From assembly GCF_019139675.1 (NCBI RefSeq), contig NZ_CP077077.1, positions 1,426,001-1,490,000 of the forward strand: a DNA stretch of 64,000 nucleotides, in the 5' to 3' direction. The notes beneath the pieces are model-generated. The model was not told where the DNA came from. It saw only the letters and a program-made list of their open reading frames with translations, and ran no database searches. The stretch is from Pseudomonas maumuensis (GTDB taxonomy: Bacteria; Pseudomonadota; Gammaproteobacteria; Pseudomonadales; Pseudomonadaceae). The translations under genes and the position numbers were made by a program. Positions 3,126 through 14,100 of this stretch are shown piece by piece. The stretch's first letter is position 1, and each line of letters opens with the position of its first letter.

Positions 3126-4073
3126 TCAGGCCTGGTTCTGTTCGGCCGACCAGCTGGCGTACCAGCTGCGGAACAGCGCGTACTGCTGCTCGGCATAGTT
3201 GCGCTGGGCGTCGCTGAGGGCATCGGTTTCGTTGAAGTGCAGGCGGTACTCGGTGTCGCCGTTGAGCACCATCAGGTGCTTGTAGTACAGCACCAGGTCG
3301 CAGCCTTCATCGAACGACGACAGTACCGCCAGCGCTGCTTCCAGCTCACGTGCCTGACGCCGGGCCTTGGCATCGCCCTTGGCGGCGCGCTTGCTCAGGC
3401 TGACCAGTTGCAAGACTTCGCGGGGCAGGGCGTTGCCGATGCCGGTGATGGCGCCGGTGGCGTTGCAGTTGACGAAGCCATGCACCACTTGCGTGTCGAC
3501 GCCGACCATCAGGGTCACGGCGTCGTCCTGGGAGGTGATGTGCTCGGCGGCGTAGCGCAGGTCGGCGCCGCCGCCGAACTCCTTGAAGCCGATCAGGTTC
3601 GGGTACTCGCGGCGTAGTTCGAAGAACAGGTCGGCGCGGGTGGCGAAGCCGTAGTAGGGGCTGTTGTAGATCACCGCCGGCAGCTTCGGCGCGGCGGCGA
3701 GGATCGCCGAGAAGTGGTGCTTCTGGGCGATCAGCGAGGCGCCACGGGACAGCACGCGGGGGATGACCATCAGGCCGGCGGCACCGACCTTGGCGGCGTG
3801 GGCGGCATGGGATACGGCTTCGCGGGTGTTCACCGCGCCGGTGCCGACGATGGTCGGGATGCCGGCGGCCACCAGGCGCGCCACGCCTTCCTGGCGTTCG
3901 GCCTCGGTCAGCAGCGGCCAGTCGCCCATCGAGCCGCAGTACACCACCGCGCTCATGCCGGCCTCGATCAGTTCGCGGCCCTTGCGCACCAGGGCGTCGA
4001 AGTCCGGCTTGCGCTCGGCGGTGCAGGGAGTCATCAGGGCGGGCATGGTGCCGGTGAAGATGTTGTCGGTCAT
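3126..4073 (-). CDS. lhpC: 1-pyrroline-4-hydroxy-2-carboxylate deaminase (DapA/DHDPS family)
   Basis: A 315-residue TIM-barrel protein of the dihydrodipicolinate synthase family. The start is the ATG at 4073, eight bases after AGGAG; a GTG nine bases further out overlaps that ribosome site and is rejected. Family residues are visible: CGSMGD (about 46-51, the GTTGE-equivalent loop), Tyr136 in VIYNSPYYG and the Schiff-base Lys164 in GFKEFGG. In the hydroxyproline pathway this branch of the family deaminates and dehydrates the cyclic imine to 2-oxoglutarate semialdehyde. It sits between the epimerase and the dehydrogenase, which fixes its role. Confidence 0.9.
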
Positions 4074-4114
4074 TGTTGTCACTCCTGGCGGTATTCAGTG
4101 GGAAATCAACGGGG

Positions 4115-5041
4115 TCAGATGCCCCAGGCGAACGGATCCTGTTCGTCGATCAGCAGGATGCTGTCGGCGGTCATGTGGGCGCGGCCGGTGATGAACGGGC
4201 GAATGCGCTCGCCGTCGCGTTCGTAGCGGCCCTGGAAGCGGCTGCCGGTGATGCTGGCCTGGACCCAGGTCTGGCCTTCGGCGAGCTTGCCGTCGGCGGC
4301 CAGGCACGCCAGCTTGGCGCTGGTGCCGGTGCCGCAGGGCGAGCGGTCGTAGGCCTTGCCGGGGCACATGACGAAGTTGCGGCTGTCGGCGTTGGCGTCG
4401 TCGGCGAACAGCTCGACATGGTCGATCGGGGCGCCGTCCTCGCCGCTGATGCCTTGTGCTTCGAGGGCCTTGAGCAGGGCCCAGGTGTAGTCGGTGAGGG
4501 CTTCGCGGTTGTCCAGCTCGATACGCTGGCCGTGGTCGGAGACCAGGAAGAACCAGTTGCCGCCCCAAGCTATGTCGCCGCACACCTGGCCATGCCCTGG
4601 CACTTGCACCGCCACCTGACGGCGGTAGCGGTAGGACGGCACGTTGCCGACAGTGACTGAGCCGTCGTCATGCAAGGTGGCGCTGACCTGGCCGACCGGT
4701 GTGTCGATCCTGTGCATGCCCGGTCCGATCAGGCCAAGGTGGCGCAGCGAGGCGACCAGGCCGATGGTGCCGTGACCGCACATGTTCAGGTAGCCGGCGT
4801 TGTTGAAGAAGATCACCCCGCAGGTCGCATCCGCAGACACCGGGGGGCAGTACAGCGCGCCCACCAGGACATCGCTACCGCGCGGCTCCAGCAGGCAGGC
4901 GCGGCGCCAGTGGTCGTGCAGTTCGCGCAGTTCGTCGCGCTGCTCGGCCATGCTGCGGCCATGTAGCTGTGGGAAACCTTTCATCACCAGGCGGGTCGGT
5001 TCGCCGCCGGTGTGGGAGTCGATCACATGAACGTGTTTCAT
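4115..5041 (-). CDS. lhpA: 4-hydroxyproline 2-epimerase (proline racemase family)
   Basis: A 308-residue, cofactor-free epimerase. It interconverts trans-4-hydroxy-L-proline and cis-4-hydroxy-D-proline, the first step of the pathway. The two catalytic cysteines are in MCGHGTIG (Cys88, with His90) and [10 protein letters not shown] (Cys about 235); the presence of both Cys separates true epimerases from the Thr-containing dehydratases of the same fold. The start is the ATG at 5041 ([15 protein letters not shown]), with GGA upstream; another ATG four codons earlier lacks a ribosome site. It follows the permease after a 23-bp gap. Confidence 0.93.
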
Positions 5042-5064
5042 CGGCGTGTCCATTGGGTAGTGGG

Positions 5065-6681
5065 TCAAGAGGCGACGGCGGCGGGGTGTTGGGCGGCATG
5101 GGCCTCGCTGGCGGCTTCGCTTTCGTCGTCGCCATCGAGGCGCACCAGCCGCGCCGGCACACCGGTGGCGGCGCCCCAGTAGTAGATGCCCAGGGCACTG
5201 GCAGCCACGACCACGGTATCCAGCGGGTGGCCGATCACGCCCAGGCCACCGAAGCTGCCCAGCCAGGAGAGGAAAATGGTCACGGCGTAGAAGCCGATCA
5301 GCCAGGCCGACGAGCGCACCTGCTGGCCCAGCGACAGGTGTTCGGTAGGCACGAAGCGCCGGCACAGCAGGTACAGCACGAACATCACGATCTGCAGCGC
5401 CAGCAGCCAGGACACGGTGTTCCAGCCCGACCAGTAGACGATCAGCGCGGCGATGATGAACGACAGCGGGCCGAGCACGGCCATGCCCTTGACCTGGAAC
5501 GGCCGGGCCATGTCCGGGGCGCTGCGGCGCAGGGCGGCCACGGACACCGGGGCCACGGCGTAGCTCAGCACCAGGGCGGCGGAGACCACGTTGATCAGCG
5601 CTTCCCACGACGGGAACGGCAGGGTCCAGAACACCGCCAGGGCGAAGGTCAGCCACAACGCCGGGCGCGGGATGCCGGACTGCTCGTCGATGCGGGTGAA
5701 GTACTTGAAGAAGGTGCCGGTCTGCGCCCAGCCGTAGATCACTCGCGGGGTGGCGTTCATGTAGATGTTGCCGCAGCCGCTGGGCGAGATCACCGCGTCG
5801 GCCACCACCAGGTAGGCCAGCCAGCCGACCCCCAGGGCCAGGGCGATGTCACGGTAGGGCAGGGCCAGTTCCTTGGTCACCCCGGCCCAGCCGTTGGCAA
5901 TCATCTCGGTCGGCACGCTGCCGAGGAACGCCAGTTGCAGCAGGGCATAGATCGCGGTGGACAGCAGCACCGAGAGAATCAGCGCGATGGGGATGGTGCG
6001 CTGCGGGTTCTTCACCTCGCTGGCCACCGAGATGATCGGGGTCAGGCCCAGGTAGGCGAAGATGATGCCGCCGGCCGACACCGCCATCTCCACGCCGGAT
6101 AGGCCGAACGGGGCGAAGCCCTGGACTTCGAAGTTCTCCGGTTTGAAGAAGGTGAACAGCACGCCGATCACCAGCAGCGGCACGATGAACTTGAACACGC
6201 TGACCAGGTTGTTGGCCTTGGCGAAGGTCTTCACGCTGCGGTAGTTGAGCACGAAGAACAGCCCCAGCAGGGCGAACTGCACCAGCCAGCCGAGCACCGT
6301 CGGGTCGCTGGAGCCGCTCTTGGTCAGCGCCGGGAACCAGGCCGCGGCGTACTGGCGCGAGGCGACCACCTCGATGGCGATCAGGCTGGAGAAGGCGATC
6401 AGGGTGATGAAACCCATCAGGTAGCCGAGCAGCGGGCCGTGGGAGTACACCGGGTAGCGCACCACGCCGCCGGCCCGTGGCAGGGCGGCGCCGAGCTCGC
6501 AGTAGACGATGCCCAGTAGCAGCACGGCGAAACCGCCGAGGAACCAGGAGAGGATGCCGGCCGGCCCGGCGATGGCCGAGACGTGGCTGGCGGCGAACAG
6601 CCAGCCCGAGCCGAAGATGGCACCGAGGCCGATGAAGGTGAGGTCCAGCAGTGACAGCTGTTTCTTGAATTTGCCTGACAT
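5065..6681 (-). CDS. Hydroxyproline permease (APC superfamily amino acid transporter)
   Basis: A 538-residue polytopic membrane protein, about 12 hydrophobic segments, opening [20 protein letters not shown]. The [12 protein letters not shown] motif in TM1 is the substrate-binding unwound helix typical of APC transporters. It is the first gene of the operon and would import hydroxyproline with protons. The start is the ATG at 6681 with AAGG seven bases upstream. The substrate is inferred from the operon, not from the sequence. Confidence 0.85.
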
Positions 6682-6690
6682 GGGTGCGCC

Positions 6691-6758
6691 TTCTTGTAGG
6701 TTTTGGATAGGCAGGTCTGATGTCACGATGCAGCGGCATGCGCCGCGTTCTTGTAGGT
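6691..6758. promoter_or_regulatory. Direct repeat TTCTTGTAGGT, candidate AraC-type (LhpR) half-sites
   Basis: The 11-mer TTCTTGTAGGT occurs at 6691-6701 and again at 6748-6758, in the same orientation, between the permease start and the divergent AraC-type regulator. Read on the minus strand the flanks also match (CCTACAAGAAGGCG against CCTACAAGAACGCG). The inner copy lies over the permease ribosome site. Paired direct repeats are what AraC-family activators bind, but no binding data exist here. Confidence 0.4.
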
Positions 6759-6925
6759 CATGGGGCGGCTTGCGTGGGGCATAGAGTGGACCGATCGGGG
6801 GCTCGGTTCTTGATGGTTTTCTGCAAGGTGGGTGACGAAATCGGCATAGTCGGGAGCAAATGCTGGCGCCCGATGGGGACTGCTGACTAGGCTTGCAGGG
6901 CGCCAGAACCACTAGAGATGACCGC

Positions 6926-7705
6926 ATGTCCGAGCAACCGTTGACTGCGCTGTACCAGCACCTCGACCAGCACCGCCCCGAATCCCTCGAAGCCTTGCTC
7001 ACCGGCGTGGTCTGGCTGCTACCGATGCTCGACGTCATCGCCAATGCGGCGATCTTCATCAAGGACGACCAGGCCCGCTATGTGCTGGCCAACCGCACGC
7101 TGGTCCAGCGCTGCGGTTTGAAGCACCTGCAACCGCTGCTGGGCAAGACCAGCGCCGAGGTATTCCCGGCGCGCCTGGGCCCCGGCTACACCGAGCAGGA
7201 TCGCCGGGTGCTGGAGCAGGGCCAGGTGCTGGAGGACCAGCTTGAACTGCACCTGTACGGCAGCCGCGAGCCGGGCTGGTGCCTGACCCACAAACGTCCG
7301 CTGTACGATGCGGCGGGGGCGATCATCGGCCTGGTGGGCATTTCGGTTGACCTTCAGTCAGCCGCCGACACCCACCCCGCCTACCAGCGCCTGGCCGCCG
7401 TGGACGCGTTTATCCGCGCGCATTTCCACCAGCCGATCAGCATGGGCGAGCTGACCCGCATAGCCGGCATCTCGGTGGCGCAGCTGGAGCGCTACTGCAA
7501 GCGGGTGTTTCACCTCACACCCCGGCAGATGATCCACAAGGCCCGTCTGGAACATGCGCACCACCTGCTGCACAGCGACCTGCCGATCATCGAGGTGGCG
7601 CTGCGCTGCGGCTACACCGACCACAGCGCCTTCAGCCGGCAGTTCAGGCAACTGACCGGGTTTACCCCGCGCCAGTACCGCCAGGCCACGGCTCAGGAAG
7701 CTTGA
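6926..7705 (+). CDS. lhpR: AraC-family regulator of hydroxyproline catabolism
   Basis: A 259-residue protein. The N-terminal half resembles a PAS-like sensor (ANAAIFIKDDQARYVLANRT, VGISVDLQS). The C-terminal 100 residues are an AraC double helix-turn-helix: a first HTH around SMGELTRIAGISVAQLERYC and a second ending in GYTDHSAFSRQFRQLTGFTP. The start is the ATG at 6926 (MSEQPLTAL); a TTG 33 bases earlier is less likely. It is divergent from the permease and is probably the activator that responds to hydroxyproline. Its last 13 bases overlap the convergent LysR gene. Confidence 0.87.
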   Translation: MSEQPLTALYQHLDQHRPESLEALLTGVVWLLPMLDVIANAAIFIKDDQARYVLANRTLVQRCGLKHLQPLLGKTSAEVFPARLGPGYTEQDRRVLEQGQVLEDQLELHLYGSREPGWCLTHKRPLYDAAGAIIGLVGISVDLQSAADTHPAYQRLAAVDAFIRAHFHQPISMGELTRIAGISVAQLERYCKRVFHLTPRQMIHKARLEHAHHLLHSDLPIIEVALRCGYTDHSAFSRQFRQLTGFTPRQYRQATAQEA

Positions 7706-8580
7706 AACAGGGCGCGGGCCTCGTCGAAACACTGTTCGGCGATGGCCGAGCGTGGCTCGCTGCGGCGCAACAGCAGGCCGACCGGGCTGTGGATGCTCGC
7801 CTCCTGCACCGGGATGATGCGCATGTGCTGGCTGAGGTCTTCCAGGCCGCAGTCCAGTGGCATGATCGCGCAGCACACGCCGGTGTTGATCGCCTGGATC
7901 AGCTGGAAGGTCGAGTCGCTCTCGAGCACGGCGTTGGGCGTGAGGCCGCGGCTGCGGAAGCTCAGGTCGAGTGATTGGCGGTAGTGCATGCCTTTGCTCA
8001 GCAGGCCCAGTGGCAGCTCGCCCAGCTCTTCCCAGTGCAGGCTGTCGACCTCGAACTGGAAGTGCCGGGTGTCGTGCAGCAGGCCCATGGTGGTGATGCT
8101 CAGCTCGATCACTTCGAAGAAGCTGGTGTTGACCTGGTCGAGGTAGCAGATGCCCAGGTCGAGCTGGTTGCGGCTCAGGCCGTCGATCACCTGCTCTGAG
8201 CTCAGCGACGAAAGCTGGAAATGCAGCTCGGGGTACTTCGCGCGCAACGGCATCAGCAGTTGCATGGGGTTGAAGCTGGCCAGCGGCACGGTGCCCAGGC
8301 GCAGGCTGCCGACCACCTGGCCCCGGCAGCTGGCGGCCTCGGCCTGCAGGCCGTCGTGGGCGGCGAGCAGGGTGCGGGCCCAGGCCAGGATGCGTTCGCC
8401 GGCTTCGGTGAAGCCTTCGAAGCGCTGGCCGCGCTTGACCAGCACCAGGTCGAGTTCGTCTTCGAGGTTGCGCAGGCGCATGGACAGGGTCGGCTGGGTG
8501 ATGTGGCACAGCGCCGCCGCCTGGCCGAAGTGGCGGGTCTGGTCGAGGGCGATGAGGAACTTGAGCTGTTTGATGTCCAT
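7693..8580 (-). CDS. LysR-family transcriptional regulator, probable controller of the molybdenum island
   Basis: A 295-residue LysR-type regulator. The HTH is at the N-terminus (MDIKQLKFLIALDQTRHFGQ, then LCHITQPTLSMRLRNLEDEL), followed by a periplasmic-binding-protein-like effector domain. The ATG at 8580 is used; the open frame extends 13 codons further without a better start. It is divergent from moaB, and the gap holds a classical GAT-N11-ATC LysR box that recurs upstream of the YdeP-type gene at 11653. This is why I assign it to the island rather than to the hydroxyproline genes. The effector is unknown. Confidence 0.85.
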   Translation of the reverse strand: MDIKQLKFLIALDQTRHFGQAAALCHITQPTLSMRLRNLEDELDLVLVKRGQRFEGFTEAGERILAWARTLLAAHDGLQAEAASCRGQVVGSLRLGTVPLASFNPMQLLMPLRAKYPELHFQLSSLSSEQVIDGLSRNQLDLGICYLDQVNTSFFEVIELSITTMGLLHDTRHFQFEVDSLHWEELGELPLGLLSKGMHYRQSLDLSFRSRGLTPNAVLESDSTFQLIQAINTGVCCAIMPLDCGLEDLSQHMRIIPVQEASIHSPVGLLLRRSEPRSAIAEQCFDEARALFQAS

Positions 8581-8674: not shown

Positions 8675-8720
8675 GCGATAGAAACCGTCGATCACCCGGT
8701 ACGCGCTATCGATTGGACGC
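8675..8720 (+). promoter_or_regulatory. LysR-type operator and promoter upstream of moaB
   Basis: GAT (8677-8679), eleven bases, then ATC (8691-8693) gives the T-N11-A LysR box. CGATTGGACGC follows at 8710-8720 and contains a -35-like TTGGAC, with a -10-like TCTAAC 16 bases after it. The same arrangement, with identical spacing, stands before the molybdoenzyme gene. Confidence 0.65.
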
Positions 8721-8772
8721 TACCGGGGCTTCTCTCTAACGTGGCCGCCAAGCCAATCCTGGAGCAAAGGCC

Positions 8773-9312
8773 ATGAGCGTGAAACCGGACGCGGTGTTCG
8801 TACCGCTGAACATCGCGGTGCTGACCGTCAGCGACACCCGCACCTTCGAGACCGACACTTCCGGCGAGCTGCTGGCCAGCCGCGCGGTCGGCGTGGGCCA
8901 CCGCCTGGTGGCGCGCGAGCTGCTCAAGGACGATCTGTACAAGATCCGCGCCCAGGTCGCCACCTGGATCGCAGACGAACAGGTGCAGGTGGTGCTGATC
9001 ACCGGTGGCACCGGTTTCACTGGTCGCGACAGTACGCCGGAAGCGGTGGACTGCCTGCTGGACAAGCGCATCGACGGCTTCGGTGAATTGTTCCGCGCCT
9101 TGTCGATTCTCGATATCGGTACCTCGACCGTGCAGAGCCGGGCCCTGGCCGGCATGGCCAACGGCACCCTGGTGTGCTGCCTGCCGGGCTCGACCGGCGC
9201 CTGCCGCACGGCATGGGAGGGGATCCTGGCCGAGCAGCTGGATGCGCGGCACCGGCCGTGCAACTTCGTCCCGCACCTGAAGCCGATCGGGGCCTGCGAA
9301 AGCCGCGGTTGA
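8773..9312 (+). CDS. moaB: Molybdenum cofactor biosynthesis protein B (MoaB)
   Basis: A 179-residue MoaB/MogA-fold protein. The signature VVLITGGTGFTGRDSTPEAV (about residues 75-95) and the SRALAGMANGTLVCCLPGSTGA segment (about 122-143) are the molybdopterin-binding loops. MoaB/Mog proteins adenylate molybdopterin before molybdate insertion. The ATG follows GGAG and lies 53 bp after the LysR-type promoter element. Having moaB next to moaA and a molybdoenzyme suggests a local supply of cofactor. Confidence 0.92.
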   Translation: MSVKPDAVFVPLNIAVLTVSDTRTFETDTSGELLASRAVGVGHRLVARELLKDDLYKIRAQVATWIADEQVQVVLITGGTGFTGRDSTPEAVDCLLDKRIDGFGELFRALSILDIGTSTVQSRALAGMANGTLVCCLPGSTGACRTAWEGILAEQLDARHRPCNFVPHLKPIGACESRG

Positions 9313-9374
9313 TCCGACTCTATCGCGGAGCAAGTTCGTTCCCACGCATTACCTCAACACAGTTGTAGCCGGTA

Positions 9375-9450
9375 CGGCCCTATCGCCGGCAAGCCGGCTC
9401 CCACAGGGGGGGCACTCTGCCTTGTGGGAGCCGGCTTGCCGGCGATAGGG
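9375..9450. repeat. REP pair, convergent genes moaB / bestrophin
   Basis: Two near-perfect inverted copies, TATCGCCGGCAAGCCGGCTC and its complement GAGCCGGCTTGCCGGCGATA, are separated by about 14 bp. They lie between two convergent genes, where such a stem commonly serves as an mRNA 3' end. A weaker relic (TATCGCGGAGCAAGTTCGTT) lies at about 9321-9340. Confidence 0.85.
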
Positions 9451-9472
9451 CTGCGCAGCAGCCCCGGCAATG

Positions 9473-10372
9473 TCAGCTCAACACATGATCCACCGGCACC
9501 AACGCCGGTGGCAGTGGCTCATGCCCCAGGGCCGACAGCACATCGCGCTCTATGGTGCGCACCAGCGCGTCGGTCGGCAGGTCGTTCTCATCCCGTCCGA
9601 AGGGGTCTTCCAGCTCGTTGCCGATCGCATCCAGGCCGAAGAAGGTGTAGCTGACGATGGTGGTGAACAGCGGCGCCAGCCAGCCCAGCGGTTCGGCCAG
9701 GGCGAACGGCAGCAGCAGGCAGAAGATGTAGATGGTGCGGTGCAGCAGCAGGGTGTAGGGGAACGGCAGTGGCGTACCCTTGATCCGCTCGCAGGTGGCC
9801 TGCACGTCCGACAGGCCGGCCAGGCGCTGCTCCAGCAAGGTGTAGCGGAACTCGCTGATCGCGCCACGCTCCGCCAGCCGTGAACAATGTTCACCCACCT
9901 CACGCAGGATGCCGTCGCAGACATTGTGCGCCACGATCTGCGCCTTCTCGCCCAGCCAGGGGCGGGCGGCGCCGAGCTCGTCTTCGTTGCGCAGCCGGGC
10001 ATTGAGGGCATGGGCGAAGGCACAGAGGCTGCGCAGCAGTTCCTTGCGCAGCGCCTCATCCTTGATCACCACGCTTTCGCGCACGAACGAGCGCACCTCG
10101 ATGATCATCCGCCCCCAGGCCTTGCGGCCTTCCCACCAGCGGTCGTAGCAGGCGTTGTTGCGAAAGCTCATGAAGATCGACAGCGACAGCCCCAACAGGG
10201 TGAAGGGCGTGGCGCTGACCGGGTAGAACAGCGCCGGGTAGTGCCGCTCGACCAGCACGATCAGCGCCGCGAGCAAGGTCACCGCCAGGCAGCGCAGGGC
10301 GATGCGCTGGACGATCGAGCCTTTGAGGGTGAACAGCACGCGCAGCAGGTCGGGGCGTGAGTGGACGATCAA
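9473..10372 (-). CDS. Bestrophin-like (UPF0187/YneE family) membrane channel protein
   Basis: A 299-residue membrane protein. The start is a TTG at 10372 giving MIV, the conserved N-terminus of this family, with GGA six bases upstream. Features: two early hydrophobic segments (about 25-60), the family signature SFRNNACYDRWWEGRKAWG (about 69-87), an alpha-helical middle and a hydrophobic pair near 200-240 ending in SYTFFGLDAIGNELEDPFG. Bacterial bestrophins are pentameric anion or cation channels. It lies 21 bp after moaA and is probably co-transcribed, but no role in molybdenum metabolism is established. Confidence 0.85.
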   Translation of the reverse strand: MIVHSRPDLLRVLFTLKGSIVQRIALRCLAVTLLAALIVLVERHYPALFYPVSATPFTLLGLSLSIFMSFRNNACYDRWWEGRKAWGRMIIEVRSFVRESVVIKDEALRKELLRSLCAFAHALNARLRNEDELGAARPWLGEKAQIVAHNVCDGILREVGEHCSRLAERGAISEFRYTLLEQRLAGLSDVQATCERIKGTPLPFPYTLLLHRTIYIFCLLLPFALAEPLGWLAPLFTTIVSYTFFGLDAIGNELEDPFGRDENDLPTDALVRTIERDVLSALGHEPLPPALVPVDHVLS

Positions 10373-10393
10373 GGCGGTTCCAGAGGCGGCCGA

Positions 10394-11413
10394 TCAGCCG
10401 CCGGTCATGTTCATGAAGCGCAGGATCTGCACCTCGCCGCCCACTTCGAAGTGGTGACGGTAGGGTTTGAGCTGCATGGCGTCGCGGATGGCTTTTTCCA
10501 GGCGGGCGCTGTCGCCGGGGCGCTGGCGCATGACCTGCTTGAGGTCCACCGAGTGTTCGTTGCCCAGGCACAGCAACAGGCGGCCCTCGACGGTCAGGCG
10601 CACGCGGTTGCAGGTGGCGCAGAAGTTGTGGCTGTGGGGCGAGATGAAACCGACCCGGGTGTTGGGCGCCTCGGCCAGGCGCCAGTAGCGCGCCGGGCCC
10701 TGGGACGACTCGGCCGACTCGACCAGGGTGAAGTGCTCGGCCAGGCGCGCGCGTACGTCGTCGCTGGAGCAGAACGATTCGCCGCGCTCGTGCTCGCTGA
10801 TCACGCCCAGGGGCATTTCTTCGATGAACGAGATATCCAGTTCGCGGTCGATGGCGAAACGCACCAGGTCGACGATCTCGTGGTCGTTGCGGCCCTTGAG
10901 CACCACCGCGTTGAGCTTGGTGCGGCGAAAGCCCGCGGCGCGCGCGGCGTCGATCCCGGCGATCACCTGCGCTAGGTCGCCGGTGCGGGTCAGGGCGCGG
11001 AAGTGCTCGGGGTCAAGGCTGTCGAGGCTGATGTTCAGGCGCGACACGCCGGCATCGAACAGCGGCTGGGCCAGGCGGCCAAGCTGCGAGCCATTGCTGG
11101 TCAAGCACAGTTCGCGCAGGCCGGGCAGGGCGGCGATGCGCCCGCAGAGCTCGACGATGCCTTGGCGTACCAGCGGCTCGCCGCCGGTCAGGCGGATCTT
11201 GCGGGTGCCCAGGGCGACGAAACGCTCGGCGACCTGGTACAGCTCTTCGAGGCTGAGAATCTGCTGGCGCGGCAGGAACTGCATGTCTTCAGCCATGCAA
11301 TAGACGCAGCGAAAGTCGCAGCGGTCGGTAACCGACATCCGCAGGTAATCGACTTTGCGGTTGAAACCGTCGATCAGGGCCTGGGGGTTCTTTTCCACGT
11401 TCGCGCTCGACAT
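10394..11413 (-). CDS. moaA: GTP 3',8-cyclase MoaA, radical SAM enzyme of molybdenum cofactor synthesis
   Basis: A 339-residue radical SAM protein. The N-terminal cluster is CDFRCVYC (Cys32, Cys36, Cys39) and the C-terminal second [4Fe-4S] cluster is built from CATC and LLLCLGNE. The protein ends in the functional double glycine (NMTGG). It converts GTP to the cyclic intermediate on the way to precursor Z. The ATG at 11413 is preferred to a start 36 codons upstream, because MoaA proteins begin shortly before the DxFxRKVDYLR segment. It is divergent from the YdeP-type oxidoreductase. Confidence 0.94.
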
Positions 11414-11557
11414 TGAAGTGGCTGGGGGCGGCGAAAGGCCGCGGATAAGGTCCAAGCTATAACCTGCGCCCATTGGCGTCAAATTGCTTTGCCCGACCAT
11501 TCGATCAGTCTCCTCTATCACGGCTGCAGGCCGCGCCGGCCAAGGGCCGGGCCCGGT

Positions 11558-11601
11558 GATCGAAACGCTTTATCACGCCGTCATTTATTTCGATTGGACG
11601 C
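11558..11601 (+). promoter_or_regulatory. LysR-type operator and promoter upstream of the YdeP-type oxidoreductase
   Basis: GAT (11558-11560), eleven bases, ATC (11572-11574), then CGATTGGACGC at 11591-11601. The 33-bp offset between GAT and CGATTGG equals that before moaB (8677 to 8710), and the distance to the start codon is also nearly equal (52 against 53 bp). It lies in the divergent moaA/ydeP-like gap, so it could act on both. Confidence 0.65.
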
Positions 11602-11652
11602 AGCAGGGGGCGCTTCTTAGGCTGGAAAAAACACCGTGCGGAGAAGCGCAGC

Positions 11653-13980
11653 ATGAGCCAGGACGAACACATCAGGGACTACAAGGGGCCGGCCGCCGGC
11701 TGGGGCGCGCTCAAGAGCGTGACCAAGAGCTGGCTGGGCAGCGAGAACGCCTTCAAGAACCTGCGGGCCATGCTCAAGACCAACCAGAACGGTGGTTTCG
11801 ACTGCCCGGGTTGCGCCTGGGGCGAATCGCCGGAAAGCGACATGGTCAAGTTCTGCGAGAACGGCGCCAAGGCGGTCAACTGGGAAGCTACCGGGCGCTC
11901 GGTGGATCCGGCGTTCTTCGCCCGCTATAGCGTCAGCGCCTTGCTCGAACAGACCGACTACTGGCTCGAGTACCAGGGCCGCATCACCCACCCGATGCGC
12001 TACGACGCGGCCACCGATCATTACGTCGAGATCAGCTGGGACGAGGCATTTGCCCTGGTCGCCCGGCACCTGAACGACCTCGCTTCGCCCGATCAGGCCG
12101 AGTTCTACACCTCGGGCCGGGCCAGCAACGAGGCGGCGTTCCTCTACCAGTTGTTCGTGCGTGCCTACGGCACCAACAATTTCCCCGACTGCTCGAACAT
12201 GTGCCACGAGGCCAGCGGCGTGGGCATGGCCGAAACCCTCGGCGTGGGCAAGGGCACCGTGGTGTTCCATGACCTGGAGCTGGCCGATGCGATCTTCGTG
12301 ATTGGCCAGAACCCCGGCACCAACCACCCGCGCATGCTCGAACCGCTGCGCGAGGCGGTCAAGCGTGGTGCCCAGGTGGTCTGCTTCAACCCGCTCAAAG
12401 AGCGCGGGCTCGAGCGCTTCCAGCATCCGCAGCACCCGTTCGAGATGCTCAGCAACGGCTCCGAGCCGACCAACACTGCGTACTTCCGTCCGGCGCTGGG
12501 TGGCGACATGGCGGCCATGCGCGGGATTGCCAAGTTCCTCCTGCAGTGGGAGCGCGAGGCGCAGTTGAACGACGAGCCGCCGGTGTTCGATCACGCCTTC
12601 ATTGCCGAGCACACCAGTGGCGTCGAGGCCTACCTGGCCGTGGTGGACGCCACACCCTGGGAGCATATCGTCGAGCAGTCGGGCCTGAACAAGGCCGAGA
12701 TCGAGCTGGCCGCGCGCATGTACCGCAAGGCCGAGCGGGTGATCATGTGCTGGGCCATGGGCGTCACCCAGCACCGCCATTCGGTGCCTACCGTGCAGGA
12801 AATCGTCAACCTGCAGCTGCTGCGCGGCAACGTCGGCAAACCCGGCGCTGGCCTGTCGCCGGTGCGCGGCCACAGCAACGTGCAGGGCGACCGCACCATG
12901 GGCATCGACGAGAAGCCCAAGACGGCGCTGCTCGACGCCATCGAGAAACGCTTCCAGTTCAAGGTGCCCCGCGAGCACGGCCATAACGCCGTGCTGGCGA
13001 TCCAGGCAATGGAAGAAGGGCGGGCCAAGGTGTTCGTCGCCCTGGGCGGCAACTTCGCCCAGGCGACTCCGGACACCCCGCGTACCCATGCGGCGCTACG
13101 CAACTGTGAGCTGACCGTGCAGATCTCCACCAAGCTCAACCGCTCGCACCTGGTCACCGGGCGCGATGCATTGATCCTGCCTTGCCTGGGCCGCACCGAG
13201 ATCGATATCCAGGCCGAAGGGCCGCAGGGCGTCACCGTGGAGGACACCTTCAGCATGGTGCATATCTCCCATGGCCAGCTGAAACCGCGTTCTGCACTGC
13301 TGCGTTCGGAGCCGGCCATCGTCGCCGGCATGGCCAAGGCCACCCTGGGCAATCGACCCATCGACTGGGACTACGCGATTGCCGACTATGGCCGCATCCG
13401 CAGCATGATCGCCGATGTGATTCCCGGCTTCGCCGACTTCAACGCCCGCCTGCAGCATCCGGGCGGGTTCCATCTGGGCAACCACGCCGCGGACCGCAAC
13501 TTCCGCACGGCCACCGGCAAGGCGCGTTTCACCCCGAGCCAGTTGCCGGAGCAACTGGTCAACGCGGCTGTGCTGGCCCGCGGTGACAAGCCGGACCTGA
13601 TCCTGCAGACCTTGCGCTCCCACGATCAGTACAACACCACGCTGTATGGGCTCGATGACCGTTACCGTGGCGTGTTCGGGCTGCGCGAGGTGGTGTTCGT
13701 CAACGAGGCCGATATCCGCCGCCTGGGCTTCGAGCCGGGCGAGCAGGTGGATATCGTGTCGTTGTGGGAGGACGGCCTCGAGCGGCGAGTGTCGGGCTTC
13801 CGCCTGGTGGCCTATGACGTGCCTGAAGGGCAGGCGGCGGCCTATTACCCGGAGACCAATCCATTGGTGCCGCTGGAAAGCTACGGTGAGGGAACCTACA
13901 CACCAACATCGAAGTTCGTGGCGATCAGGCTGGAGAAGGCCAAGGCGGGGAACCGGATCGAGGCCACCCTGGCTGACTGA
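11653..13980 (+). CDS. FdhF/YdeP-family molybdopterin oxidoreductase
   Basis: A 775-residue molybdopterin-dependent oxidoreductase. The N-terminus has FDCPGCAWGE (about 55-64) in place of the four-Cys iron-sulfur motif of classical formate dehydrogenases, typical of the YdeP branch. Further motifs are YTSGRASNEAAFLYQLF, NMCHEASG, FVIGQNPGTNHPRM and, near the C-terminus, the molydopterin dinucleotide-binding domain (LQTLRSHDQYNTTLYGLDDR; TNPLVPLESYG). No Tat signal is seen, so it is probably cytoplasmic. No partner subunit is adjacent. The natural substrate of this branch is unknown, and the label formate dehydrogenase should be read as homology only. Confidence 0.88.
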   Translation: MSQDEHIRDYKGPAAGWGALKSVTKSWLGSENAFKNLRAMLKTNQNGGFDCPGCAWGESPESDMVKFCENGAKAVNWEATGRSVDPAFFARYSVSALLEQTDYWLEYQGRITHPMRYDAATDHYVEISWDEAFALVARHLNDLASPDQAEFYTSGRASNEAAFLYQLFVRAYGTNNFPDCSNMCHEASGVGMAETLGVGKGTVVFHDLELADAIFVIGQNPGTNHPRMLEPLREAVKRGAQVVCFNPLKERGLERFQHPQHPFEMLSNGSEPTNTAYFRPALGGDMAAMRGIAKFLLQWEREAQLNDEPPVFDHAFIAEHTSGVEAYLAVVDATPWEHIVEQSGLNKAEIELAARMYRKAERVIMCWAMGVTQHRHSVPTVQEIVNLQLLRGNVGKPGAGLSPVRGHSNVQGDRTMGIDEKPKTALLDAIEKRFQFKVPREHGHNAVLAIQAMEEGRAKVFVALGGNFAQATPDTPRTHAALRNCELTVQISTKLNRSHLVTGRDALILPCLGRTEIDIQAEGPQGVTVEDTFSMVHISHGQLKPRSALLRSEPAIVAGMAKATLGNRPIDWDYAIADYGRIRSMIADVIPGFADFNARLQHPGGFHLGNHAADRNFRTATGKARFTPSQLPEQLVNAAVLARGDKPDLILQTLRSHDQYNTTLYGLDDRYRGVFGLREVVFVNEADIRRLGFEPGEQVDIVSLWEDGLERRVSGFRLVAYDVPEGQAAAYYPETNPLVPLESYGEGTYTPTSKFVAIRLEKAKAGNRIEATLAD

Positions 13981-13983
13981 CAG

Positions 13984-14085
13984 GGCCGGCCTTATCGCTG
14001 GCAAGCCAGCTCCCACAGGGATGGCGTTTGGCTTGAGGTCGACGCCGTCGGGGTGGGAGCCGGCTTGCCGGCGATGAGGCCGGTC
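13984..14085. repeat. REP pair, convergent genes
   Basis: A slightly degenerate forward copy (TATCGCTGGCAAGCCAGCTC) faces a perfect reverse copy (GAGCCGGCTTGCCGGCGATG). It separates the molybdoenzyme from the convergent Lrp-type regulator. Confidence 0.8.
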
Positions 14086-14100
14086 CTGCCAGAGATCATT

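What the first reader, a model, noticed from the sequence alone, without database searches (positions are those of the whole stretch)
8675..11601. Long ungapped LysR-type promoter shared by moaB and a YdeP-type molybdoenzyme
The sequences before moaB (8675-8720) and before the molybdoenzyme (11556-11601) align without gaps: GAT-N11-ATC, then CGATTGGACGC at the same 33-bp offset, 11 of 11 bases identical in the last block and about 20 of 35 before it. Distances to the start codons are 53 and 52 bp. This points to one LysR regulator, most simply the divergent gene at 7693-8580, coordinating cofactor synthesis and the apoenzyme. The moaA-bestrophin pair sharing the second gap may belong to the same regulon. 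I know of no description of it.
Basis: partly seen in the sequence, partly recalled or inferred. Interest (0 to 1): 0.8.

Follow-up and report, generated by a model that had tools for sequence, protein, structure and literature searches.

The report
LysR regulon for formate detoxification
A shared 42-base promoter element ties together the genes by which Pseudomonas and some relatives break down toxic formate (the enzyme, its metal cofactor, its helper protein and two kinds of anion channel), most likely under one unstudied regulator.

Summary
In detail: the two sites match at 31 of 46 bases and are each other's best match in the window. The element is an inverted repeat GATMGA-N5-TCKATC, 17 bp, then GATTDGAC overlapping a -35 box; a TANNNT -10 box follows 18-19 bp later in 200 of 202 assigned sites. 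A third copy faces moaA (window 11519-11478, minus strand), so moaA-bestrophin has its own site. Elsewhere in this genome copies precede fdhD-ydeP1 and a formate/nitrite channel gene.

In 149 genus genomes the element occurs in 143; the six without it are exactly the six without this LysR. It precedes moaB in 57 of 57, ydeP in 56 of 56 and moaA in 57 of 57 named loci carrying the gene, and ydeP in 7 of 9 loci outside Pseudomonas.

In P. putida the counterparts PP_4596, moaA, moaB-II, PP_0256 and fdhD are reported as formate-induced; that paper's main text does not mention LysR.

Best reading: a formate-responsive LysR activator runs a formate-oxidation regulon that includes molybdenum-cofactor supply. 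DNA binding and ligand are inferred. Induction is published; my searches found no description of site or regulator.

The parts
7693..8580 (-). LysR-type regulator, proposed activator of the regulon
   Evidence: Pfam HTH_1 and LysR_substrate; reaches none of the curated cut-offs among the 25 NCBIfam families shown; next listed match in this genome has 26% identity; co-occurs with the site
8677..8718 (+). Site 1, upstream of moaB (and in the divergent gap before the LysR gene): GATAGA-N5-TCGATC, N17, GATTGGAC
   Evidence: 0 mismatches to the consensus
8737..8742 (+). -10 box TAACGT, 18 bp after TTGGAC (8713-8718)
   Evidence: TANNNT at 18-19 bp in 33 of 33 moaB sites; coordinates read
8773..9312 (+). 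moaB
   Evidence: TIGR02667, 272.7 bits over cut-off 222.4
9473..10372 (-). Bestrophin-family anion channel, directly downstream of moaA
   Evidence: PF25539, E 1.8e-108; PDB relatives 4wd7, 4wd8
10394..11413 (-). moaA (start taken as the ATG at 11413)
   Evidence: TIGR02666, 380.2 bits over cut-off 284.05, scanned from 11440
11454..11459 (-). -10 box TAGCTT of the moaA promoter
   Evidence: TANNNT at 18-19 bp in 39 of 40 moaA sites; coordinates read
11478..11519 (-). Site 3, upstream of moaA-bestrophin
   Evidence: 2 mismatches to the draft pattern; 3 to the final one; site before moaA in 57 of 57 named loci with the gene
11558..11599 (+). Site 2, upstream of the ydeP-type formate dehydrogenase: GATCGA-N5-TTTATC, N17, GATTGGAC
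   Evidence: 1 mismatch; 56 of 56 named loci with the gene
11618..11623 (+). -10 box TAGGCT, 18 bp after TTGGAC (11594-11599)
   Evidence: TANNNT at 18-19 bp in 35 of 35 ydeP sites; coordinates read
11653..13980 (+). FdhF/YdeP-family molybdoenzyme (formate dehydrogenase by correspondence to PP_4596)
   Evidence: TIGR01701, 945.8 bits over cut-off 582.15; PP_4596 deletion lowers formate tolerance (PMC10308882, passages)

Best explanation
The LysR protein at 7693-8580 binds the 42-bp element as a tetramer: one dimer on the inverted repeat GATMGA-N5-TCKATC around -64, the other on the GATTDGAC half-site that overlaps the -35 box. In response to formate it activates sigma-70 promoters of moaB, moaA-bestrophin and ydeP2 in the window and, in trans, fdhD-ydeP1 and a formate/nitrite channel elsewhere in the genome. 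The output is formate oxidation with matched supply of pterin precursor (MoaA), pterin adenylation (MoaB), sulfuration (FdhD) and anion traffic (channels). Shown here: sites, geometry, conservation, co-occurrence with the LysR and target families. Shown by others: formate induction of the P. putida counterparts of moaA, moaB, ydeP2, fdhD and ydeP1. Inferred: direct binding, activation rather than derepression, formate as the ligand, tetramer contacts and transcription starts.
For: Own genome: four hits at up to 2 mismatches with the final pattern, each before a regulon gene, plus moaA. Genus: 143 of 149 genomes have the site and the six without are the six lacking the LysR (Fisher p 7e-11). 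Family: 86 both, 2 LysR only, 7 site only, 53 neither. Pattern-driven loci: 28 of 29 and 27 of 28 counted sites precede regulon genes; in 40 regions that I picked, mostly outside the loci already known, 41 of 46 sites do. Named loci 57/57, 56/56, 57/57. Compared with the window's LysR, 17 A- and B-type proteins are 82-94% identical over the first 62 residues (DNA-binding part) and 50-76% over the rest. In 15 of 15 A loci read with a local LysR the order is LysR, site, fdhD. In 17 of 17 P. putida-type A loci read (L064, L084-L099) the site before fdhD is kept (up to 3 mismatches to the draft) but no LysR lies in the fetched stretch. In this genome the window's LysR is then the only close family member listed. 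Formate induction in P. putida: PMC10308882 (passages, and sections 14 and 15). PF01226 for the channel gene.
Against: I found no binding or mutant data for this LysR. Co-occurrence is confounded by joint loss of enzyme and regulator: of the six genus genomes without the LysR, five also lack a close YdeP; the sixth (G013) keeps a 70% YdeP with no site within 5 mismatches in its 5.3-kb locus, so the enzyme can be run without this system. G253, another LysR-less genus member, has a 47% YdeP. Two family genomes have the LysR and no site at 2 mismatches (G166, G174; G174 has a 3-mismatch site near it). Five of 46 sites in the picked regions had no assigned target (one, in L224, does lead to a ydeP-like frame). 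Another LysR, MexT, has a mild effect on PA5180 in P. aeruginosa (PMC12607905, one table passage; that PA5180 is the fdhD of the A locus is recalled). The published induction used 240 mM formate, so some changes may be stress.
Confidence: 0.85

Rival explanations
1. The same LysR runs this regulon, but its ligand is not formate: for example a C1-derived or pterin/molybdenum signal, bicarbonate, or acid/oxidant stress, and formate acts indirectly.
For: The closest named NCBIfam profile is the cyanate regulator CynR (126.9 bits, cut-off 277); the published formate response also includes ped, cio and pnt genes, i.e. a wider stress.
Against: Regulon content is formate-centred: FDHs, FdhD and a formate/nitrite channel, and in two of the genomes read fdoG-type formate dehydrogenase-N (profile run on one of the two). 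FdsR of Cupriavidus is a formate-activated regulator (PMC7057948, passages; its LysR membership recalled), so the chemistry is within the family's reach.
Confidence: 0.2
2. A different regulator, such as the PAS-AraC protein at 6923-7705, binds the element; the LysR is a bystander.
For: The AraC gene is a neighbour.
Against: The element has the LysR form (T-N11-A repeat plus a half-site at -35), lies beside the LysR in many loci read, precedes the LysR gene itself in several relatives and is absent from the genomes without the LysR in the genus sample. The distribution of the AraC gene was not tested.
Confidence: 0.05
3. The two window sites are only a recent duplication of a promoter region, without shared regulation.
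For: Sites are identical over 11 bases.
Against: The three window sites differ outside the consensus positions, and the same consensus positions persist across genera and before unrelated genes.
Confidence: 0.01

Closest known systems
FdsR of Cupriavidus necator (LysR-type, formate-inducible)
   Same: Regulator of a formate-inducible promoter, 4.5-fold with Km 130 uM (PMC7057948, table passage seen). LysR membership and the adjacent formate dehydrogenase genes are recalled.
   Different: Reported there with one promoter. Here: YdeP-type FDHs, cofactor genes, channels, several unlinked promoters. Sequence relation to FdsR not tested.
Formate response of Pseudomonas putida EM42 (PP_4596, PP_0256-fdhD, moaA, moaB-II)
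   Same: Same gene families by name and locus order; induced by formate; PP_0256-57 and PP_4596 deletions lower formate tolerance (PMC10308882).
   Different: LysR has 0 occurrences in its main text; supplements not seen. The P. putida sequence itself was not compared with the window.
E. coli YdeP
   Same: Same enzyme family, TIGR01701; 47-49% identity to the P. putida proteins (PMC10308882).
   Different: The window protein does not reach the YdeP equivalog cut-off (828.9 of 1473); E. coli ydeP is linked to acid resistance under EvgA (recalled).
CynR, OxyR and other named LysR regulators
   Same: Fold and domain order.
   Different: Scores 126.9 of 277 for CynR and 98.4 of 329 for OxyR.

Membership tests
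LysR-type transcriptional regulators | N-terminal HTH_1 plus C-terminal LysR substrate domain | tested here: met
   PF00126 54.2 bits, PF03466 111.3 bits
LysR-type transcriptional regulators | Gene transcribed divergently from a target, site in the shared gap | tested here: met
   LysR starts at 8580 on the minus strand, site 8677-8718, moaB from 8773
LysR-type transcriptional regulators | T-N11-A inverted repeat near -65 and activation half-site overlapping -35 | tested here: met
   By sequence and spacing only; occupancy and transcription start not tested
LysR-type transcriptional regulators | Autoregulation | tested here: inconclusive
   13 sites before a LysR gene in the 80 named loci and several in unnamed ones; in this window only the shared gap
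LysR-type transcriptional regulators | Small-molecule co-inducer (formate) | not testable with these tools
   Inferred from published induction of the counterpart targets
FdsR | Adjacent NAD-linked fds formate dehydrogenase operon (defining feature recalled) | tested here: not met
   Window neighbours are moaB, bestrophin, moaA and ydeP
FdsR | Sequence orthology to FdsR | not tested
   No FdsR sequence fetched
CynR | NCBIfam NF008416 curated cut-off | tested here: not met
   126.9 of 277 bits
FdhF/YdeP oxidoreductases | TIGR01701 cut-off | tested here: met
   945.8 over 582.15 bits
Formate/nitrite transporters (gene at G000:C1:3324651) | PF01226 cut-off | tested here: met
   271.3 bits over 34.6; FocA equivalog TIGR04060 not met, 157.6 of 290.1
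Bestrophin | PF25539 cut-off | tested here: met
   362.8 bits over 27

The most novel reading that the evidence does not exclude
The regulon is a horizontally spread formate-detoxification module with its own formate-sensing LysR, and the bacterial bestrophin in it is a formate (or formate/bicarbonate) channel, functionally equivalent to the FocA-type channel under the same promoter element in other places.
Probability: 0.35. Interest if true: 0.75.

Novelty: new member of a known kind. Interest (0 to 1): 0.62.

Why it matters
It would give the missing regulator and DNA site for a formate response of Pseudomonas putida, a chassis for formate- and methanol-based biotechnology, and show one transcription factor setting enzyme, cofactor synthesis, cofactor sulfuration and anion channels together. 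It also attaches a physiological context to a bacterial bestrophin, a family whose cellular role in bacteria I believe is unsettled (recalled): the same promoter element precedes formate/nitrite channel genes and bestrophin genes. The site is specific enough to propose regulon members in new genomes.

Tried and rejected
Mis-spaced pattern: one search used one base too many before the last block and missed the two known sites; replaced.

'Limited to Pseudomonadaceae': the class sample (9 of 369 genomes at E up to 1e-40, own genome included, the others at most 45% identity) suggested this, but the named scan found 70-76% relatives in Photobacterium, Zobellella, Vibrio, Pokkaliibacter and Marinobacter. 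I dropped the claim.

Chance repeat or duplicated promoter: rejected.

Unassigned sites: L146 (a 65-aa frame of unknown kind, a longer frame that looks GGDEF-like by eye), L147 minus site, L159 (333 bp before a cioA-type gene), and L103/L116, L191, L232 (2-mismatch hits, probably chance). Three 3-mismatch hits (G000:C1 near 461957, 4229574, 5716691) were not examined.

Literature: (terms: locus tags PA5179-81, PP_0256, PP_4596-4601; formate+LysR+FdsR; formate-responsive+LysR; FdhR; fdhD+LysR; bestrophin+formate, among others) showed no description of this regulator or site. Most hits I saw as listings only; passages were read in PMC10308882 (with two sections), PMC7057948, PMC12421819, PMC12314914, PMC6147739, PMC8533678, PMC5175280 and PMC12607905. 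The library holds open-licence papers only, so this is not proof of absence. PMC12421819 mentions a LysR, PP_4156, a different locus tag. PMC5175280 links a PA5181 insertion to phage C11 adsorption and mentions neither LysR nor formate.
Full report
Observation. In a scan of both strands of the window each is the other's best match, ahead of 27 and 25 of 46 for the runners-up. The gaps to the ATGs are 52 and 51 bp. The 11-mer alone, with up to 2 mismatches, is no more frequent than chance (24 against 29.5 expected).

Anatomy. Orthologues turned the pair into a consensus: GATMGA-N5-TCKATC (an inverted repeat with T-N11-A), 17 bases, then GATTDGAC. TTNGAC inside the last block serves as -35. A TANNNT box follows after 18 bp in 160 and 19 bp in 40 of the 202 assigned sites; 2 have none. 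In the window these boxes are 8737-8742, 11618-11623 and, for moaA on the minus strand, 11459-11454. This is the usual layout of a LysR-activated promoter: recognition repeat near -65, activation half-site over -35 (general knowledge of the family).

A third site and trans targets. A search of the whole genome with the draft consensus gave five places at up to 2 mismatches and no hit for the reversed control: the two sites, a site facing moaA at window 11519-11478 (-), a site before fdhD-ydeP1, and a site before a formate/nitrite transporter gene (PF01226 271.3 bits). At 3 mismatches there were four more: one overlaps the fdhD site on the other strand, three were not examined. The genome has two PF01226 genes; the site-bearing one is the higher-scoring.

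Genus and family tests. The final pattern (20 specified positions, up to 2 mismatches) hit 143 of 149 genus genomes (own included), 373 hits in all, against 1 control hit. The six hit-free genomes G013, G028, G060, G069, G082 and G138 are exactly those whose best LysR match is only about 1e-16 to 1e-18, while all others are 6e-62 or better. In 148 family genomes from 19 genera, taking E below 1e-60 as LysR present: 86 with both, LysR alone in G166 and G174, site alone in 7 (8 hits, all with 2 mismatches), neither in 53; 4 control hits. Two of the 88 LysRs are only 45-46% identical (G158, which has sites, and G174). G174 has a 3-mismatch site near its LysR; in G166 the fetched stretch stops at a contig end and shows none up to 6 mismatches.

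Which genes. Loci fetched automatically because of the pattern: 28 of 29 counted sites (30 loci) and 27 of 28 (29 loci) lie within 330 bp of a regulon gene by diagnostic protein motif, mostly fdhD (23 and 27). These loci are the best hit of each genome, which favours fdhD. I then picked 40 regions from the listed hits, mostly outside the loci already known: 19 of 22 and 22 of 24 sites precede bestrophin (15), moaA (10), formate/nitrite channel (5), ydeP (4), fdhD (4), fdoG-type formate dehydrogenase (2) or moaB (1). fdoG identity: TIGR01553 1008.7 bits over 814.2 for one of the two. In other loci the site also precedes the LysR gene itself, mobA (TIGR02665 196.7 over 151.85) and a moaC fragment-moaD pair. 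The listing was capped, so not all 373 hits were assigned.

Two lineages of the LysR. In 15 of 15 A-type loci that I read with a local LysR (L065-L071, L074-L077, L100-L103) the order is LysR, site, fdhD on one strand. The window has the B-type. Compared with it, 17 A- and B-type proteins are 82-94% identical in the first 62 residues and 50-76% in the rest. In 17 of 17 P. putida-type A loci read (L064, L084-L099) no LysR lies in the fetched stretch but the fdhD site persists at up to 3 mismatches to the draft. In this genome the next listed LysR relative is only 26% identical, so the window's LysR is the only close family member seen for all five promoters.

Named loci. One search kept the best 80 of 561 relatives, so these are close ones. 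The site (up to 4 mismatches, same strand, within 650 bp before the diagnostic motif) precedes moaB in 57 of 57, ydeP in 56 of 56 and moaA in 57 of 57 loci that carry the gene in range. Two of the 80 have no site: L253, whose contig is short, and L246, where no moaB, moaA or ydeP motif is found in the fetched stretch. Nine loci from Photobacterium, Zobellella, Vibrio, Pokkaliibacter and Marinobacter, 70-76% identical in the LysR, each have at least one site at up to 3 mismatches, 7 of 9 before ydeP. By motif, bestrophin genes lie in the same stretch in five, mobA in two, fdhD (a loose motif) in five, and a cytochrome-bd-type gene beside ydeP in L302, L304 and L313.

Function. PMC10308882 (passages, sections 14 and 15) reports that in P. 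putida PP_4596 and PP_0256-fdhD are induced by 240 mM formate, that moaA (PP_4597) and moaB-II (PP_4600) rise by log2 2.4 and 4.3, that cioAB changes strongly, and that deleting PP_0256-57 or PP_4596 lowers formate tolerance. It reports fdoGHI as not induced; none of this genome's four hits lies before an fdoG-type gene (whether the genome has one was not tested). I equate those genes with the window's by name, family and order; the KT2440 sequence was not fetched. FdsR of C. necator shows that a formate-responsive regulator of this general kind exists (PMC7057948, passages; its LysR membership recalled).

Mechanism. A formate-responsive LysR activator is the simplest account (0.85 for the regulon under this LysR; formate as direct ligand perhaps 0.75). 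The enzyme family uses a molybdopterin cofactor, and FDHs need FdhD sulfuration, so calling up MoaA, MoaB, FdhD and in some genomes MobA or MoaD with the apoenzyme fits. The channels would move formate or bicarbonate; that step is inference.

Exceptions. G013 keeps a 70% YdeP without LysR or site, and G253 a 47% one. Five sites in picked regions lack a clear target. LysR-less family genomes give 8 hits in 60 genomes at 2 mismatches, more than the reversed control (4 in 148), so single 2-mismatch hits should not be trusted alone. PA5180 responds mildly to another LysR, MexT, in P. aeruginosa (PMC12607905).

Novelty. Induction is published; the DNA element, the regulator and the bestrophin link did not appear in what I could search (calls listed under Tried and rejected). 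It is a new member of a known kind, a LysR regulon, of unusual breadth.

Noticed in passing
window 3126-7705: Upstream neighbours look like a hydroxyproline-type catabolic cluster (dapA-like synthase, proline-racemase-like enzyme, amino-acid permease, PAS-AraC regulator), read by eye from the ORF list; only the AraC was checked with profiles.
   Followed up: no
window 9350-9460 and 13990-14090: REP-like inverted repeats (CCGGCTTGCCGGCGAT type) downstream of moaB and of ydeP, read from the sequence.
   Followed up: no
L159 (G105:C191), site at 2347 minus; L302, L304, L313: A 2-mismatch site 333 bp before a cytochrome-bd-type (cioA) gene, and such a motif beside ydeP in Photobacterium/Vibrio loci; cioAB is among the formate-responsive genes of P. 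putida (PMC10308882). The terminal oxidase may belong to the regulon.
   Followed up: partly
L146, site at 241: Well-formed 2-mismatch site before a 65-aa reading frame of no recognised family; a similar site in G284:C32 (L228) precedes ydeP.
   Followed up: partly
L201 (G013:C11:1318037): A 70% YdeP homologue in a genome without the LysR and without the element: a natural test of how the enzyme is run without it.
   Followed up: partly
L238, L239 (G015, G279): Element ending in GATTAGTC before fdoG-type formate dehydrogenase-N in these two genomes; similar unexamined hits in G007 and G130.
   Followed up: partly
L276: Record titled Pantoea sp. Ap-967 carries an 88% LysR on a contig of the same length as G134:C77 of this genus, so its organism label is doubtful.
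   Followed up: no
PMC5175280, primer table; G270:C1:6114308: A primer listed there for another gene (PA1993) ends in letters that match the fdhD-type site of G270 almost to its end; possibly a mislabelled row or a further target.
   Followed up: no
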